Source: Paenibacillus sp. FSL R7-0345 (GTDB lineage Bacteria; Bacillota; Bacilli; Paenibacillales; Paenibacillaceae). From it: a stretch of DNA of 64,000 nucleotides. This document shows, piece by piece, positions 864 through 32,836 of this stretch (within the stretch, counting starts at the first letter, position 1; each line of letters begins with the position of its first letter). Made by a program: the position numbers and the translations under genes. Below the pieces are notes generated by a model. That model was given only the letters and a program-made list of their open reading frames with translations, had not been told where the DNA came from and did not search any database. The DNA lies in NCBI RefSeq assembly GCF_038595055.1, contig NZ_CP152002.1, positions 2,028,501 through 2,092,500 of the forward strand, given 5' to 3'.

Positions 864-1154
864 TAGTGCGCCCGGCATGGGCGATAACTAGGCGGTGAAA
901 GTCCGCTACAGGCTTGGCAGTAGGAACTGTTAGCCAAAGGCAAGGGTGTCCGCCGCGAGGCGGAATCTGAAGGAAGCCGGAGGCAAACCCTCGGTCTGAC
1001 GAACAGAAATCACATAGAAGGCATACTGGGACGGACGAGCTTGCTACATAAAGCGAAGTCCAATACTGCCCGAATCCCAGCATGTAAATGTGGCAGATAG
1101 ATGAGGGGAAGGTTATCGCTCTTACCCGGGGAGGTCTCACAGACGTCCGGTAGG

Positions 1155-1237
1155 AAAAAAAAAATCCGAACGACGGAGTAAAGCTTGCTGTGAGAAGTCA
1201 GCAGAAGCCATAGTACCGGGAAACTTTTTTTTTTTTT
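1155..1237 (+). repeat. Facing A10 and T13 homopolymers inside the intron RNA
   Basis: A run of ten A (1155-1164) and a run of thirteen T (1225-1237) lie 60 bases apart in the untranslated part of the intron. In RNA they could pair as a long A-U helix. They are also sites where slippage or sequencing error would be expected. Confidence 0.6.
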
Positions 1238-1298
1238 CTCGCGGGAAGGGCCGAACAATCGTAAGTCTCGAGTACAGACCGGAAGGAGAGCTGGCGCG

Positions 1299-2699
1299 AT
1301 GAAAGCAGAATACCGAAAGGGCTGCCCGCAAAGGGATAGCGTGGAACGCGAAGAGTATGCGGGAGTGCGGAGTGCCGGCATTCGGGAACGTAGAGAAAGA
1401 GGCGGTGCAATGGACCTGCTCGAGCAGATTCTGGACAGAGATAATCTGAACAGAGCCTACAAGCAGGTCAGACGCAACCATGGCGCGCCAGGAATCGACG
1501 GAATGACCGTCGAAGAGGCGCTGCCCTGGCTGCAGGAACACAAGGACGAGCTTTTGCAAAGCATCCGGGAGGGCCGGTACAAGCCTAGCCCGGTACGGCG
1601 CAAAGAAATCCCCAAACCAGATGGAAGTGGAGTGCGGAAGCTTGGCATCCCTACGGTGATAGACCGCGTGATTCAACAGGCGATTGCCCAGCAGCTACAG
1701 CCCTTGTTTGAGCCGCTCTTCGCAGACGGAAGTTACGGCTACCGCCCCGGGCGGAGTGCGCAGCAAGCCATCCGCAAGGTGAAAGATTACGCACAGCAAG
1801 GCTATAGCCACGCAGTCGAAATCGACCTCTCTAAATATTTTGACACCCTGAACCATGAACTGCTAATGAATCTGCTACGTAAGCAAATCCCGGATCACCG
1901 TGTAACCGAGCTGATTAAGAAGTATCTGAAAAGTGGAGTTATGGAGAACGGGGTGCATAGCAAAACAGAGGAAGGTTCTCCGCAAGGAGGCCCCTTATCT
2001 CCACTGCTTGCGAATATTTACCTGAATGAATTCGACCAGGAAATGAACAGCCGTGGAGTGAACGTGATTCGGTATGCAGATGACATCGTGGTACTAGCGA
2101 AAAGCAAACGGGCAGCGACGCGGCTTCTGGAATCCTGCCGGAAGTACCTGGAGAACAAACTAAAACTCCAGATGAACACGGAGAAGAGTAAGGTCGTGAG
2201 CGTAGTGGCGCGGAAGCATTTCAAGTTTCTTGGCTTTGCCTTGGGGAAGAACAGGGATGGGGCATATATCCGGGCCCATAGTCAATCTCTCGCCAAAGCA
2301 AAGAAAAAATTGAAAGAACTGACGAGTCGCAGTCAGGGCAGGAAGGTCAGGGAAGTGATGGAGAAGGTGAAAGTCTACATTCGCGGCTGGATTGGCTACT
2401 TTTATGTAGCCGATATAAAGCGAATTTTGCAAAGCTGGAGTCAATGGCTGCGTAGAAGACTGCGGATGTATATCTGGAAGCAGTGGAAAAAGCCCAAAAC
2501 AAAGGTACAAAACCTACGGAAACTGGGAATACCGGAGTGGCAGGCCTACCAATGGGGGAACTCCCGCCTGGGTTACTGGCGAGTAGCCGGAAGCCCGGTA
2601 CTGTCCCGTACGATAACAAATGAAAAGCTCGCACAGGCCGGGTATTATGACTTCCCGGCACAGTACGAGCATTTACGAAAATTGCACTTAAGCGGTTGA
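1299..2699 (+). CDS. ltrA: Group II intron reverse transcriptase/maturase
   Basis: This is the intron-encoded protein that helps the intron RNA splice and reverse-transcribes it at new sites. Conserved reverse transcriptase blocks are visible: GAPGIDGMT near the N-terminus, the fingers/palm region with YGYRPGRSAQQAI, and the catalytic YADD box in VIRYADDIVVLAK. A maturase (X) region follows (RGWIGYFYVAD and later). No C-terminal HNH endonuclease Cys cluster is seen, as expected for class C. The ATG at 1299 has a strong AAGGAGAG site upstream and gives a 466-residue protein. An internal ATG at 1410, preceded by AAAGAGG, begins at MDLLEQILDRDN and is an alternative start. The frame is unbroken. 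Confidence 0.95.
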   Translation: MKAEYRKGCPQRDSVEREEYAGVRSAGIRERRERGGAMDLLEQILDRDNLNRAYKQVRRNHGAPGIDGMTVEEALPWLQEHKDELLQSIREGRYKPSPVRRKEIPKPDGSGVRKLGIPTVIDRVIQQAIAQQLQPLFEPLFADGSYGYRPGRSAQQAIRKVKDYAQQGYSHAVEIDLSKYFDTLNHELLMNLLRKQIPDHRVTELIKKYLKSGVMENGVHSKTEEGSPQGGPLSPLLANIYLNEFDQEMNSRGVNVIRYADDIVVLAKSKRAATRLLESCRKYLENKLKLQMNTEKSKVVSVVARKHFKFLGFALGKNRDGAYIRAHSQSLAKAKKKLKELTSRSQGRKVREVMEKVKVYIRGWIGYFYVADIKRILQSWSQWLRRRLRMYIWKQWKKPKTKVQNLRKLGIPEWQAYQWGNSRLGYWRVAGSPVLSRTITNEKLAQAGYYDFPAQYEHLRKLHLSG

Positions 2700-2775
2700 A
2701 CCGCCGTATACCGAACGGTACGTACGGTGGTGTGAGAGGTCGGCTGCTCAGTTAATGAGCAGCCTCCTACTCGAT

Positions 2776-31319: not shown

Positions 31320-32255
31320 TCATAGCCAATCCTTCTTGCGGAAGATCACCAGCATTCCGCAGCCGAGCGTAACCATCACAGCAATTACGCCGTAGTAGCC
31401 GTATTGCGAATGGGTTTCAGGTATATTGTCAAAGTTCATCCCGTAGATACCGGTAATGACGGTAAGTGGCATAAATATGGTAGTTATTGCAGTAAATACT
31501 CTCATAATTTCGTTGGCACGGTTAGCAATACTGGACTGGTAAGCTTCGCGTAAGTTGCCCATGAGGTCGCGGTAGGTCTCAAAGGTTTCAGAGATCTTGA
31601 CCGCATTTTCATAAATATCGCTGAAATACTTCTGCAGTTGGTCATCGATCAGTCGCAGGTCCTTTTTGTTCAGGGTGTTGATAACTTCCTTCTGCGGCCC
31701 GAGCATCTTCTTCAGCCACAGAATTTCACTGCGCAGACCGATAATCTCGCTCAGATGCGATTTCTTGGTATGCATCAGGATATCTTCCTCAAGCTTCTCA
31801 ATCCGCGCTTCAATCCGGTCACCGACAGAGAAGTAATTGTCTACAACGATGTCGATCAGGTGGTAGAGGAAGCGGTCAGGCTCGCTGACCTCCTGCTCCC
31901 ACAGGATGGGCTTCAGGACGCGCAGCTCATGAATTTTTTGTTTGGTGACAGTAATAATGTAATGTCTGCCCAGGAATACGTTCAGTGCCCGGAGGAAAAT
32001 TTCCTCGTCATCAAACCGGATGCTGTTAACTACAATAAAATAATGGCTCTCATAAATTTCAATCTTTGGCCGCTGCTCCTCTTCACTGAGGCAGTCCTCT
32101 ACCGCCAGATCATGCAGATTGAACAGGGGCTGGAGCAGCTCCAGATCCTCATCATCAGCGTCGATCCAGTAGAATCCCTCTGCGGGGGCAGTCAGTGTTG
32201 CTTCAATATCATCGATCGGGGTAAAAACCCCTGCGTTTACCAGCCGGATTTTCAT
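31320..32255 (-). CDS. corA: CorA-type Mg2+/Co2+ channel
   Basis: A 311-residue member of the CorA-MIT family, which forms pentameric Mg2+ channels. A large cytoplasmic alpha/beta domain (about 1-240) is followed by two C-terminal membrane helices. The channel signature YGMNF is at the end of the first helix and is followed by an acidic loop FDNIPETHSQYGY. The tail RKKDWL is basic, as usual. ATG at 32255 is 8 bases after AAGGAG; a GTG at 32264 overlaps that site. The gene is preceded by a 257-base leader with an upstream ORF and a terminator-like hairpin, suggesting attenuation. Confidence 0.96.
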   Translation of the reverse strand: MKIRLVNAGVFTPIDDIEATLTAPAEGFYWIDADDEDLELLQPLFNLHDLAVEDCLSEEEQRPKIEIYESHYFIVVNSIRFDDEEIFLRALNVFLGRHYIITVTKQKIHELRVLKPILWEQEVSEPDRFLYHLIDIVVDNYFSVGDRIEARIEKLEEDILMHTKKSHLSEIIGLRSEILWLKKMLGPQKEVINTLNKKDLRLIDDQLQKYFSDIYENAVKISETFETYRDLMGNLREAYQSSIANRANEIMRVFTAITTIFMPLTVITGIYGMNFDNIPETHSQYGYYGVIAVMVTLGCGMLVIFRKKDWL

Positions 32256-32313
32256 CTGATTCACTCCTTATGTCCCCGGTCTTCTCCAGGGTTATGCTAA
32301 TTAAAGCACACGG

Positions 32314-32409
32314 AAAAAATCAGCTTGGCCAGCGGTACAATCAATGAACGGGCCAAAATGACGTTTCGAGAGCATGAAGAAATAGTGCTCCCGCCGCCGG
32401 CAAGCTGAT
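32314..32409 (-). terminator. Attenuator-like terminator in the corA leader
   Basis: On the minus strand, ATCAGCTTG+CCGGCGG (32409-32394) can pair with CCGCTGGC+CAAGCTGAT (32335-32319), giving 9 bp, one bulged base, then 7 bp including a G-U pair. A run of T follows (32319-32314). The ~58-base loop contains a smaller GAGCA/TGCTC hairpin. The 5' arm lies inside the upstream ORF and the 3' arm begins a few bases after its stop. It ends 58 bases before corA, so it would stop transcription into corA when formed. Confidence 0.7.
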
Positions 32410-32469
32410 GCTAATCCTGTGTGGTTGCTCACTTTGCACGCTTAACTGCGTACCCGGGTCGCCTTCCAT
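32341..32469 (-). CDS. 42-residue leader peptide upstream of corA
   Basis: A 43-codon frame (ATG to TGA) with a good site, AGAGGTG, 9 bases before the ATG, starting about 43 bases after the predicted transcript start. The peptide begins MEGDPGTQLSVQSEQPHRIS and ends LETSFWPVH, and its middle is SISLPAAGALFLHA. Its reading frame carries the 5' arm of the terminator stem, and its TGA is 5 bases before the 3' arm. A ribosome stopped at or near the end would block the hairpin. Known analogues in concept are corL and mgtL of Salmonella; this one is a separate sequence. Translation is inferred. Confidence 0.6.
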   Translation of the reverse strand: MEGDPGTQLSVQSEQPHRISISLPAAGALFLHALETSFWPVH

Positions 32470-32518
32470 TCTTCTCTCACCTCTGTTCTTCGTCACTTGT
32501 GCCTTGAAACACTTGTCT

Positions 32519-32547
32519 AGTATAACGCCGGGGTATGCCTCTTTCAA
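32519..32547 (-). promoter_or_regulatory. corA: Sigma-A promoter of the corA leader transcript
   Basis: Read on the minus strand: TTGAAA (32547-32542), a 17-base spacer and TATACT (32524-32519). The expected start is near 32512, giving a 257-base leader before corA. Confidence 0.75.
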
Positions 32548-32591
32548 GCAAAATTCTTTACATTTTAAGGGCTCTTCAGCATTGTATGGAC

Positions 32592-32620
32592 TTGACGAAA
32601 AGCAGGTTCATGATTTAAAG
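32592..32620 (+). promoter_or_regulatory. Likely promoter of the metA riboswitch transcript
   Basis: TTGACG (32592-32597), a 17-base spacer and a poor -10 TTAAAG (32615-32620), about 35 bases upstream of the SAM riboswitch. Confidence 0.45.
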
Positions 32621-32654
32621 TGAATTTTAAGAAAAAAATTGAATACAGCTTAAT

Positions 32655-32836
32655 CTTATCAAGAGCAGGTGGAGGGACTAGCCCTATGAAACCCGGCAAC
32701 CGGCGTGTATACGCACGGTGCTAATTCTTGCGGAAGCTATGCAGGGCATGCAGCCCGGCACTGGCTCTGGCAGATGAGAGAGGCGCATATGACTGAACCT
32801 ATATGACCTTTCTCGCGTGCGGGAAAGGTCATTTTT
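32655..32836 (+). promoter_or_regulatory. SAM-I riboswitch (S box) with terminator
   Basis: The leader has the S-box core: CTTATCAAGAGCAGGTGGAG, then GGGACTAGCCCTATGAAACC, the CGGCAACC core, GGTGCTAATTC and GGCAGATGAGAG at the closing helix. A terminator hairpin (TGACCTTTC and GAAAGGTCA followed by five T, 32804-32836) follows at once. When SAM is bound, transcription stops before metA, so the operon is expressed when methionine/SAM is low. The regulator is well known and its core is intact here. Confidence 0.96.

What the first reader, a model, noticed from the sequence alone, without database searches (positions are those of the whole stretch)
32314..32547. corA leader combines a 42-residue upstream ORF with an overlapping terminator
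Seen: a good sigma-A promoter (TTGAAA-17-TATACT), a 257-base leader, a 43-codon ORF with its own AGAGGTG site, and a 16-bp terminator stem with a U run 58 bases before corA. The stem's 5' arm is coding sequence of the ORF and its TGA lies 5 bases before the 3' arm. Known: leader ORFs (corL, mgtL) control Mg2+ transporter genes of Salmonella by coupling translation to termination. Inferred: ribosome position decides whether the terminator forms here, possibly sensing Mg2+, in a Gram-positive not known to me to use this. It does not look like an M-box.
Basis: partly seen in the sequence, partly recalled or inferred. Interest (0 to 1): 0.72.

Follow-up and report, generated by a model that had tools for sequence, protein, structure and literature searches.

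The report
Magnesium-sensing leader peptide before corA
In front of the magnesium-transporter gene corA, nearly all the Paenibacillus relatives examined carry a tiny gene that starts with the same spaced pair of acidic amino acids as E. coli's magnesium-sensing MgtL peptide, and it would likely let the ribosome itself detect low magnesium and turn corA on.

Summary
The promoter, 42-codon uORF, long hairpin and U-run are where the finding put them; comparison changes their meaning. (1) The uORF is real: 148 of 152 corA leaders have M-[D/E]-G-[D/E]; in a family held back as a check, 28 of 30 have M-[D/E]-x-[D/E]. In 66 genus leaders codons 2-5 show 0 changes at codon positions 1-2 and 9 at position 3; codons 6-9 show 40 and 31. 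The start matches MgtL's Glu2-x-Asp4-Pro. (2) The stop lies between the hairpin arms in 66 of 66. (3) The 3' arm can pair with the uORF arm or with corA's Shine-Dalgarno: 8.1 shared nucleotides versus 1.5 shuffled, 88 of 93; 25 of 28 held out. (4) Runs of 5 or more U: 25 of 66, but 51 of 66 are U-rich. Best reading: full uORF translation hides corA's ribosome site; early ribosome drop-off at low Mg2+ lets the hairpin form and exposes it. Translation, Mg2+ sensing and sign are inferred. In the window species the predicted switch is weak, and termination there is not excluded.

The parts
32519..32547 (-). sigma-A-type promoter TTGAAA-17-TATACT of the corA leader
   Evidence: -10 region recurs in relatives
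32478..32484 (-). Shine-Dalgarno AGAGGTG of the uORF
   Evidence: sequence; 7 of 8 alignment columns 49-56 show no parsimony change in 66 genus leaders
32341..32469 (-). leader ORF, 42 aa MEGDPGTQLSVQSEQPHRISISLPAAGALFLHALETSFWPVH, stop TGA 32343-32341
   Evidence: conserved start in 148 of 152 leaders, 79 of 80 loci of named records, M-[D/E]-x-[D/E] in 28 of 30 held-out leaders
32455..32469 (-). codons 1-5, M-E-G-D-P: predicted ribosome-destabilising, Mg2+-dependent element (acid-x-acid, then Pro)
   Evidence: 0 changes at codon positions 1-2 and 9 at position 3 in codons 2-5; residue 3 is V, I or S in 4 held-out leaders; spacing as Glu2/Asp4 of MgtL in PMC11282234 (passages)
32394..32422 (-). 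switch strand 1: arm inside the uORF (lower part ACACAGG, upper part AUCAGCUUGCCGGCGG)
   Evidence: P1 cells 91.9% paired in 66 leaders; arm read in two frames (59 and 7 leaders)
32306..32335 (-). switch strand 2: 3' arm and pyrimidine tail (includes U6 at 32314-32319); can pair with strand 1 or strand 3
32256..32267 (-). switch strand 3: corA Shine-Dalgarno and spacer GGAGTGAATCAG, 11 of 12 positions can pair with CUGAUUUUUUCC (32323-32312)
   Evidence: P2 cells 92.1% paired in 66 leaders; 11 of 12 formed in the MFE with the uORF body blocked, 9 of 12 without blocking
31320..32255 (-). corA, Mg2+/Co2+ transporter, 311 aa
   Evidence: PF01544 E 5.4e-70; TIGR00383 255.5 bits over cutoff 200.75

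Best explanation
The corA leader is predicted to be a ribosome-read Mg2+ switch: a conserved leader peptide starting M-[D/E]-x-[D/E]-(x)-P would likely make ribosomes fall off early when Mg2+ is low, and whether they fall off would decide which of two conserved, competing RNA pairings covers or frees corA's ribosome-binding site. SHOWN by sequence comparison: the acidic start, the spacing, the stop between the arms, the uORF-arm hairpin (P1), and the capacity of the same 3' strand to pair with corA's Shine-Dalgarno/start (P2). INFERRED: with ample Mg2+ the ribosome gets past codon 5, runs through the 5' arm and keeps P1 open, so P2 forms and corA translation is low; with scarce Mg2+ the ribosome is lost at codons 2-6, P1 forms and competes P2 away, and corA is translated. 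This is the sign expected for an Mg2+ importer. In the window's own clade the U-run inside the switch strand may add transcription termination; I judge this secondary.
For: uORF start in 148 of 152 leaders, 99 of 99 in the genus, 79 of 80 loci of named records, M-[D/E]-x-[D/E] in 28 of 30 leaders of a family represented until then by two leaders. Peptide-type constraint on codons 2-5, not 6-9; residue 3 can change, residues 2 and 4 stay acidic. MgtL has Glu2 and Asp4 in its destabilising EPDP; [quoted passage not shown] P1 and P2 are each about 92% paired and share columns 236-239 and 241. Same nucleotides able to serve both: 8.10 vs 1.47 shuffled, 88 of 93; held-out 6.91 vs 1.12, 25 of 28. 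Blocking the uORF body lowers mean predicted Shine-Dalgarno opening 0.267 to 0.163 in 93 leaders, while shuffled ones go 0.273 to 0.321. Tail x own corA start beats swapped starts in the genus (z -7.6), control z -1.2. In Salmonella mgtQ the acidic codons 2 and 5 lower mgtQ and raise mgtB translation (PMC8092293, section 10).
Against: No expression, Ribo-seq or Mg2+ data. Ribosome destabilisation by such a start is shown in the passages read for E. coli, suggested for Salmonella, and for no Gram-positive. The EttA paper says that two acidic residues alone are not enough and that a preceding Pro matters; MgtL has Pro between its acids, here residue 3 is mostly Gly. In the window species the unblocked MFE keeps 9 of 12 P2 positions beside P1, and Shine-Dalgarno opening is low in both states (0.189 free, 0.083 occupied). 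Over 148 leaders only 38 fall by more than 0.2 and 6 rise. The shared-nucleotide test blocks one partner at a time, so it shows capacity, not preference. Outside the genus the own-versus-swapped duplex test fails its control. No single branch carries a double change at P2 pair 242/324. 51 of 66 tails have 5 U in 8 bases, and 25 have runs of 5-8, which fits a terminator. Helix H2 inside P2 has no covariation support. L152, L269 and L292 lack the uORF start.
Confidence: 0.5

Rival explanations
1. Ribosome-controlled transcription attenuation: P1 with its U-run is an intrinsic terminator, and a ribosome on the uORF prevents it, so uORF translation would raise corA.
For: Window hairpin 16 bp with U6, z -3.29. 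U-runs of 5 or more in 25 of 66 leaders, all with CorA at least 92% identical to the window's; 5 U in 8 bases in 51 of 66.
Against: No run of 5 in 41 of 66; 12 leaders have UAUC or UACC and keep P1. About 65 nt between the arms. A lower helix pairs beyond the U-run. The sign would shut the importer off when ribosomes drop off (inference). The 3' arm's second partner is left unexplained.
Confidence: 0.25
2. The peptide start causes pausing (Asp-Pro, relieved by EF-P or an ABC-F factor) and not drop-off, so the leader reads translation-factor activity or general translation stress, with Mg2+ only one input.
For: Pro at codon 5 directly after the acid in 123 of 148; in B. subtilis, YfmR resolves stalls on Asp-Pro motifs when EF-P is missing (PMC11381351, passages).
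Against: 25 of 148 lack Pro at codon 5 (19 of these have it at codon 6), while acidic residues 2 and 4 are kept in nearly all. The conserved part is too short for a classical tunnel-arrest peptide (inference).
Confidence: 0.14
3. Direct metal-binding RNA switch: the leader RNA itself senses Mg2+ or Co2+, and the uORF is only a passenger.
For: Conserved two-way pairing in front of corA.
Against: No Rfam family matches in the leader; the peptide start is under codon-aware constraint; the stop is between the arms in 66 of 66; the distance from uORF start to corA varies from 119 to 372 nt.
Confidence: 0.07
4. An ordinary constitutive leader with a decoy ORF, without regulation.
For: No functional data; L152, L269 and L292 lack the uORF start.
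Against: Conservation across an order and the repeat of the switch test in another family.
Confidence: 0.04

Closest known systems
MgtL leader of E. coli/Salmonella mgtA (intrinsic ribosome destabilisation)
   Same: Short uORF before an Mg2+ transporter; acidic residues 2 and 4 and Pro 5; uORF translation inverse to the transporter; ribosome loss at low Mg2+ shown for MgtL, predicted here (PMC11282234 and PMC11552253 passages).
   Different: MgtL has Pro3, here mostly Gly3. MgtL output is Rho-dependent termination; here the conserved feature found is pairing with corA's ribosome site. Found in a Gram-positive order.
mgtQ-mgtB of Salmonella
   Same: Acidic codons early in a small ORF lower its translation and raise translation of the transporter gene through alternative stems; the authors suggest ribosome destabilisation but say it was not demonstrated there (PMC8092293 section 10).
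   Different: mgtQ lies between genes, acidic residues at 2 and 5, more strands; here a 5' leader, residues 2 and 4, three strands.
corL-corA of Salmonella/E. coli and the gammaproteobacterial corA motif
   Same: uORF in a corA leader, inverse relation of uORF and corA expression (PMC11552253 passages).
   Different: E. coli corL starts with UUG and has fewer acidic or Pro residues; Rho involved; the corA motif is reported from Gammaproteobacteria and metagenomes, 325 examples (PMC6429828 passages); no Rfam match here.
M. tuberculosis pe20 M-box translational platform
   Same: SD, anti-SD and anti-anti-SD strands compete next to uORFs in a leader tied to Mg2+ (PMC12810186 passages).
   Different: The sensor there is the M-box aptamer; none here.

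Membership tests
Ribosome-destabilising (IRD) Mg2+ leader peptides, MgtL type | Two acidic residues adjacent or one apart at the very start | tested here: met
   148 of 152; of the 4 misses L109 has it with a TTG start and L108 as MDAEP, L112 (MDAGP) and L152 do not; 28 of 30 held out
Ribosome-destabilising (IRD) Mg2+ leader peptides, MgtL type | Pro before or between the acidic residues (favoured in PMC11282234) | tested here: not met
   residue 3 is Gly in at least 148 of 152; Pro follows the second acid at codon 5 in 123 and at codon 6 in 19 of 148. A favoured, not a required, feature in that paper
Ribosome-destabilising (IRD) Mg2+ leader peptides, MgtL type | Constraint acts on the peptide, not only the RNA | tested here: met
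   Codons 2-5: 0 changes at positions 1-2, 9 at position 3; codons 6-9: 40 and 31
Ribosome-destabilising (IRD) Mg2+ leader peptides, MgtL type | Lies before an Mg2+ transporter gene | tested here: met
   corA, PF01544 and TIGR00383
Ribosome-destabilising (IRD) Mg2+ leader peptides, MgtL type | Mg2+-dependent abortion of translation | not testable with these tools
   needs in vitro translation or toeprinting
Ribosome-destabilising (IRD) Mg2+ leader peptides, MgtL type | Rho-dependent termination as output (mgtA, corA of enterics) | not tested
   no Rho-site analysis was done
Leader ORF with alternative stems that mask the ribosome site (mgtQ type) | Competing pairings, one arm in the uORF, one covering the downstream SD | tested here: met
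   in the window species the predicted competition is weak
Intrinsic-terminator attenuator | Stem directly followed by a conserved U-run | tested here: inconclusive
   runs of 5 or more in 25 of 66, 4 or more in 34 of 66, but 5 U in 8 bases in 51 of 66; met in the window itself
M-box or other Rfam riboswitch | Covariance-model match | tested here: not met
   nothing inside the leader; nearest is the SAM riboswitch on the + strand

The most novel reading that the evidence does not exclude
Gram-positive bacteria of the Paenibacillus order independently evolved a MgtL-like code, M-[D/E]-x-[D/E]-(x)-P, in which the ribosome's own stability is the Mg2+ sensor, and read it out through a three-strand translational switch in which a stretch of the uORF mimics corA's ribosome-binding site, a route different from the Rho-dependent one of enteric bacteria.
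Probability: 0.47. Interest if true: 0.85.

Novelty: new variant of a known kind. Interest (0 to 1): 0.72.

Why it matters
Ribosome destabilisation by acidic nascent chains as an Mg2+ sensor is known, in the passages read here, from enteric bacteria. A conserved acid-x-acid start before corA across a Gram-positive order would show that the principle is general and has arisen with a different output. It would explain how these bacteria could regulate corA without an M-box, and gives a natural series (181 genomes examined: 152 plus 29 new in the held-out family) with a fixed start and a variable body for testing which nascent-chain features destabilise a Bacillus-type ribosome.

Tried and rejected
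Rfam search of the window and of 32000-32800 at relaxed threshold: nothing inside the leader. Plain terminator reading: tested by U counts; runs are not general, the looser U-rich measure is (51 of 66), so it is kept as a rival. Swap test of tail against corA start beyond the genus: own pairs beat permutation, but so did a control window inside corA (0 of 5000 permutations as good outside the genus, 2 of 5000 over all 93), so I do not use it there; within the genus the control is negative (571 of 5000). Branch-wise co-change counts in the genus: P1 one each at 119/252, 121/250, 135/232 and 137/230, the last two not ending in a standard pair, none at 122/249, 138/228, 139/227; P2 one at 241/326, not ending in a standard pair, none at 236/330 and 242/324. 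The pair counts therefore rest largely on differences between clades. Helix H2 (UGUGCU:AGCAUA) inside P2: 80.3% of cells paired, covariation score reached by 184 of 500 shuffles. Class-wide search: orthologues outside the order were seen in one family (f31); 0 of 12 of its leaders and 0 of 8 leaders of paralogous corA genes of other Bacilli show the motif. Own genome: 5 pattern hits against 2 for the reversed pattern; of the other four, three open frames run 206 codons or more and one 22. Literature: no paper on this leader seen in the searches (open-licence PMC only).

Choice of leaders: searches list far more corA places than I fetched, and the list was cut. The 152 are the 99 genus leaders I could get (100 genus genomes, one without a match at the threshold) plus 53 of the order: 13 and 40 picked by me, one to several per genus, fetched after I had seen the uORF in the first 30 loci but before it was checked elsewhere. 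Ten duplicate loci (L116-L125) and three paralogue loci (L113-L115) were dropped before counting. The held-out family gave 56 matches in 59 genomes, of which the tool supplied 30 loci; L294 repeats the genome of L026. In one search a scan of 300 nt gave 20 of 30; one search widened it to 600 nt and allowed any residue 3. The regular expression fixes codon positions 1-2, so the wobble counts hold for matching leaders only. The named set of 80 overlaps the 152. Seeds are not reproducible.

Full report
What is there. On the - strand, 32547 to 32255, the window holds a sigma-A-like promoter, a leader of about 257 nt and corA (corA by PF01544 and TIGR00383). The leader contains a 42-aa ORF (32469-32341) with its own AGAGGTG, and a long hairpin whose 5' arm is coding sequence of that ORF and whose 3' arm follows the stop and runs into U6 (32319-32314). 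The 106-nt hairpin region folds better than 199 of 200 shuffles (z -3.29); the whole leader does not stand out. Divergent to it lies a SAM riboswitch before a metA-like gene (name recalled from the sequence).

The ORF is under selection at its start. I collected 152 corA leaders from the window's order (named members are mostly Paenibacillus and Cohnella): 99 from its genus and 53 others. 148 of 152 have ATG-GA[N]-GG[N]-GA. Of the four misses, read by eye, L109 has the same start with TTG (MDGDRPKP), L108 reads MDAEP, L112 MDAGP, and L152 has none. Wobble bases vary (codon 2 GAA 103, GAC 33, GAT 10, GAG 2; codon 3 GGC 122, GGT 18, GGA 6, GGG 2; codon 4 GAC 134, GAT 10, GAA 3, GAG 1) and Glu and Asp exchange. 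Pro sits at codon 5 in 123 of 148 and at codon 6 in 19 of the other 25 (MEGDRPRP, MEGDHPRP, MEGDNPRP, MEGEGPKP). On a tree of 66 genus leaders, codons 2-5 have 0 changes at positions 1-2 and 9 at position 3; codons 6-9 have 40 and 31. Loci of named records, which overlap this set, give 79 of 80.

A held-out test. The family called f6 had been represented by two leaders. I searched it separately (30 loci supplied of 56 matches): 20 of 30 leaders match the strict pattern within 300 nt, 4 more match farther upstream, and 4 have another third residue, MDVDRPGP twice, MDIDRS and MDSDPRS. So 28 of 30 carry M-[D/E]-x-[D/E]; L287 (MDGADP, by eye) and L292 do not. L294 repeats a genome already counted. 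The third residue can change and the two acidic ones stay. This fits the published feature of early ribosome destabilisation: acidic residues adjacent or one apart near the start, as Glu2 and Asp4 in MgtL's EPDP. The same paper says that two acidic residues alone are not enough, and that Pro before the acids matters (PMC11282234, passages); here the Pro comes after the second acid.

Beyond the order it was not found. In the class Bacilli, orthologues at 57-63% identity were seen in one more family (f31); 0 of 12 of its leaders and 0 of 8 leaders of paralogous corA genes show the motif.

The RNA allows two states. In 66 genus leaders (alignment A1) the hairpin P1 has a lower and an upper helix, 91.9% of cells paired against 30-40% when slid, with 41 cells changed on both sides against 16.2 in shuffles. 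The 3' arm has a second partner, corA's Shine-Dalgarno and spacer. In the window CUGAUUUUUUCC (32323-32312) faces GGAGUGAAUCAG (32267-32256) with 11 of 12 positions able to pair. This P2 is 92.1% paired against 24-52% slid, with 16 both-side cells against 4.4. P1 and P2 share columns 236-239 and 241. The ORF stop lies between the two P1 arms in 66 of 66, 30-60 nt after the first and 0-43 nt before the second, and the first arm is read in frame 0 in 59 and frame 2 in 7, so its conservation is at RNA level.

Tests of the switch. For 93 non-redundant leaders I computed which nucleotides after the stop pair with the ORF when the corA start is blocked, and which pair with the corA start when the ORF body is blocked. 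On average 8.10 nucleotides serve both, against 1.47 with a shuffled middle; 88 of 93 exceed their shuffles, 40 of 44 outside the genus. In the held-out family it is 6.91 against 1.12, 25 of 28. This shows capacity for two partners, not which one wins. Blocking the ORF body lowers predicted opening of the Shine-Dalgarno from 0.267 to 0.163, while shuffled leaders rise from 0.273 to 0.321; 32 of 93 fall by more than 0.15 and 5 rise. Within the genus the tail binds its own corA start better than swapped ones (z -7.6; control with corA codons 2-8 z -1.2). Outside the genus that test fails its control. In the window itself the blocked fold has P2 at 11 of 12 positions, but the free fold already has 9 of 12 beside P1, and opening is 0.189 free and 0.083 blocked: the predicted switch is weak there. 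The sequences are related, so p-values are not independent evidence.

The terminator. Runs of 5 or more U after the stem occur in 25 of 66, of 4 or more in 34; 12 leaders have UAUC or UACC and still keep P1 and P2. By 5 U in 8 bases 51 of 66 pass. About 65 nt lie between the arms in the window. I read the pyrimidine tail mainly as anti-Shine-Dalgarno, and termination as possible in the window's clade.

How it most likely works. Inferred steps: with ample Mg2+ ribosomes get past codon 5, cross the 5' arm, P1 stays open and P2 hides corA's ribosome site. With little Mg2+ ribosomes are lost at the acidic start, before reaching P1 (46-47 nt downstream in 63 of 66); P1 then forms and takes the switch strand from corA, and corA translation rises. 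The sign equals that of corL and MgtL (uORF translation inverse to the transporter; PMC11552253 passages), and the read-out resembles mgtQ-mgtB, where acidic codons 2 and 5 raise mgtB translation (PMC8092293 section 10).

Known and new. Known: uORFs before mgtA, corA and mgtB in enteric bacteria. New here, as far as the searches can tell: the motif before corA throughout the sampled part of a Gram-positive order, and its three-strand pairing with corA's ribosome site. Acidic stretches and, without EF-P, Asp-Pro motifs slow B. subtilis ribosomes (PMC11381351 passages), which makes the inference reasonable but does not prove it.

Noticed in passing
L171, L172, L174, L175, L177, L178, L179 (upstream of corA, family f31): 7 of 12 corA leaders of family f31 carry a different, longer ORF with a shared stretch like PPSREALRSAYELILTxIWPR; it reads past corA's start codon in another frame. 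It may be a separate leader-ORF control.
   Followed up: partly
window 32653-32780 (+): SAM riboswitch (RF00162, 69.5 bits) with a terminator-like hairpin at 32803-32832 before a metA-like gene (name recalled); ordinary, divergent from corA.
   Followed up: no
window 949-2775 (+): Group II intron matches (RF02001, RF01998, RF00029).
   Followed up: no
L152, L269 (Paenibacillus alkaliterrae), L292: Natural leaders without the uORF start. L152 still shows CAGTCTCCTGC facing GAGAGGAG before corA (by eye), so a masking hairpin may remain without its sensor.
   Followed up: partly
Possibly misnamed.
   Followed up: no
L170 (own genome, G000:C1 near 6478002): A 22-codon frame starting MDGDINLF behind GGAG, the only other short hit of the motif pattern in this genome; context not read.
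   Followed up: no
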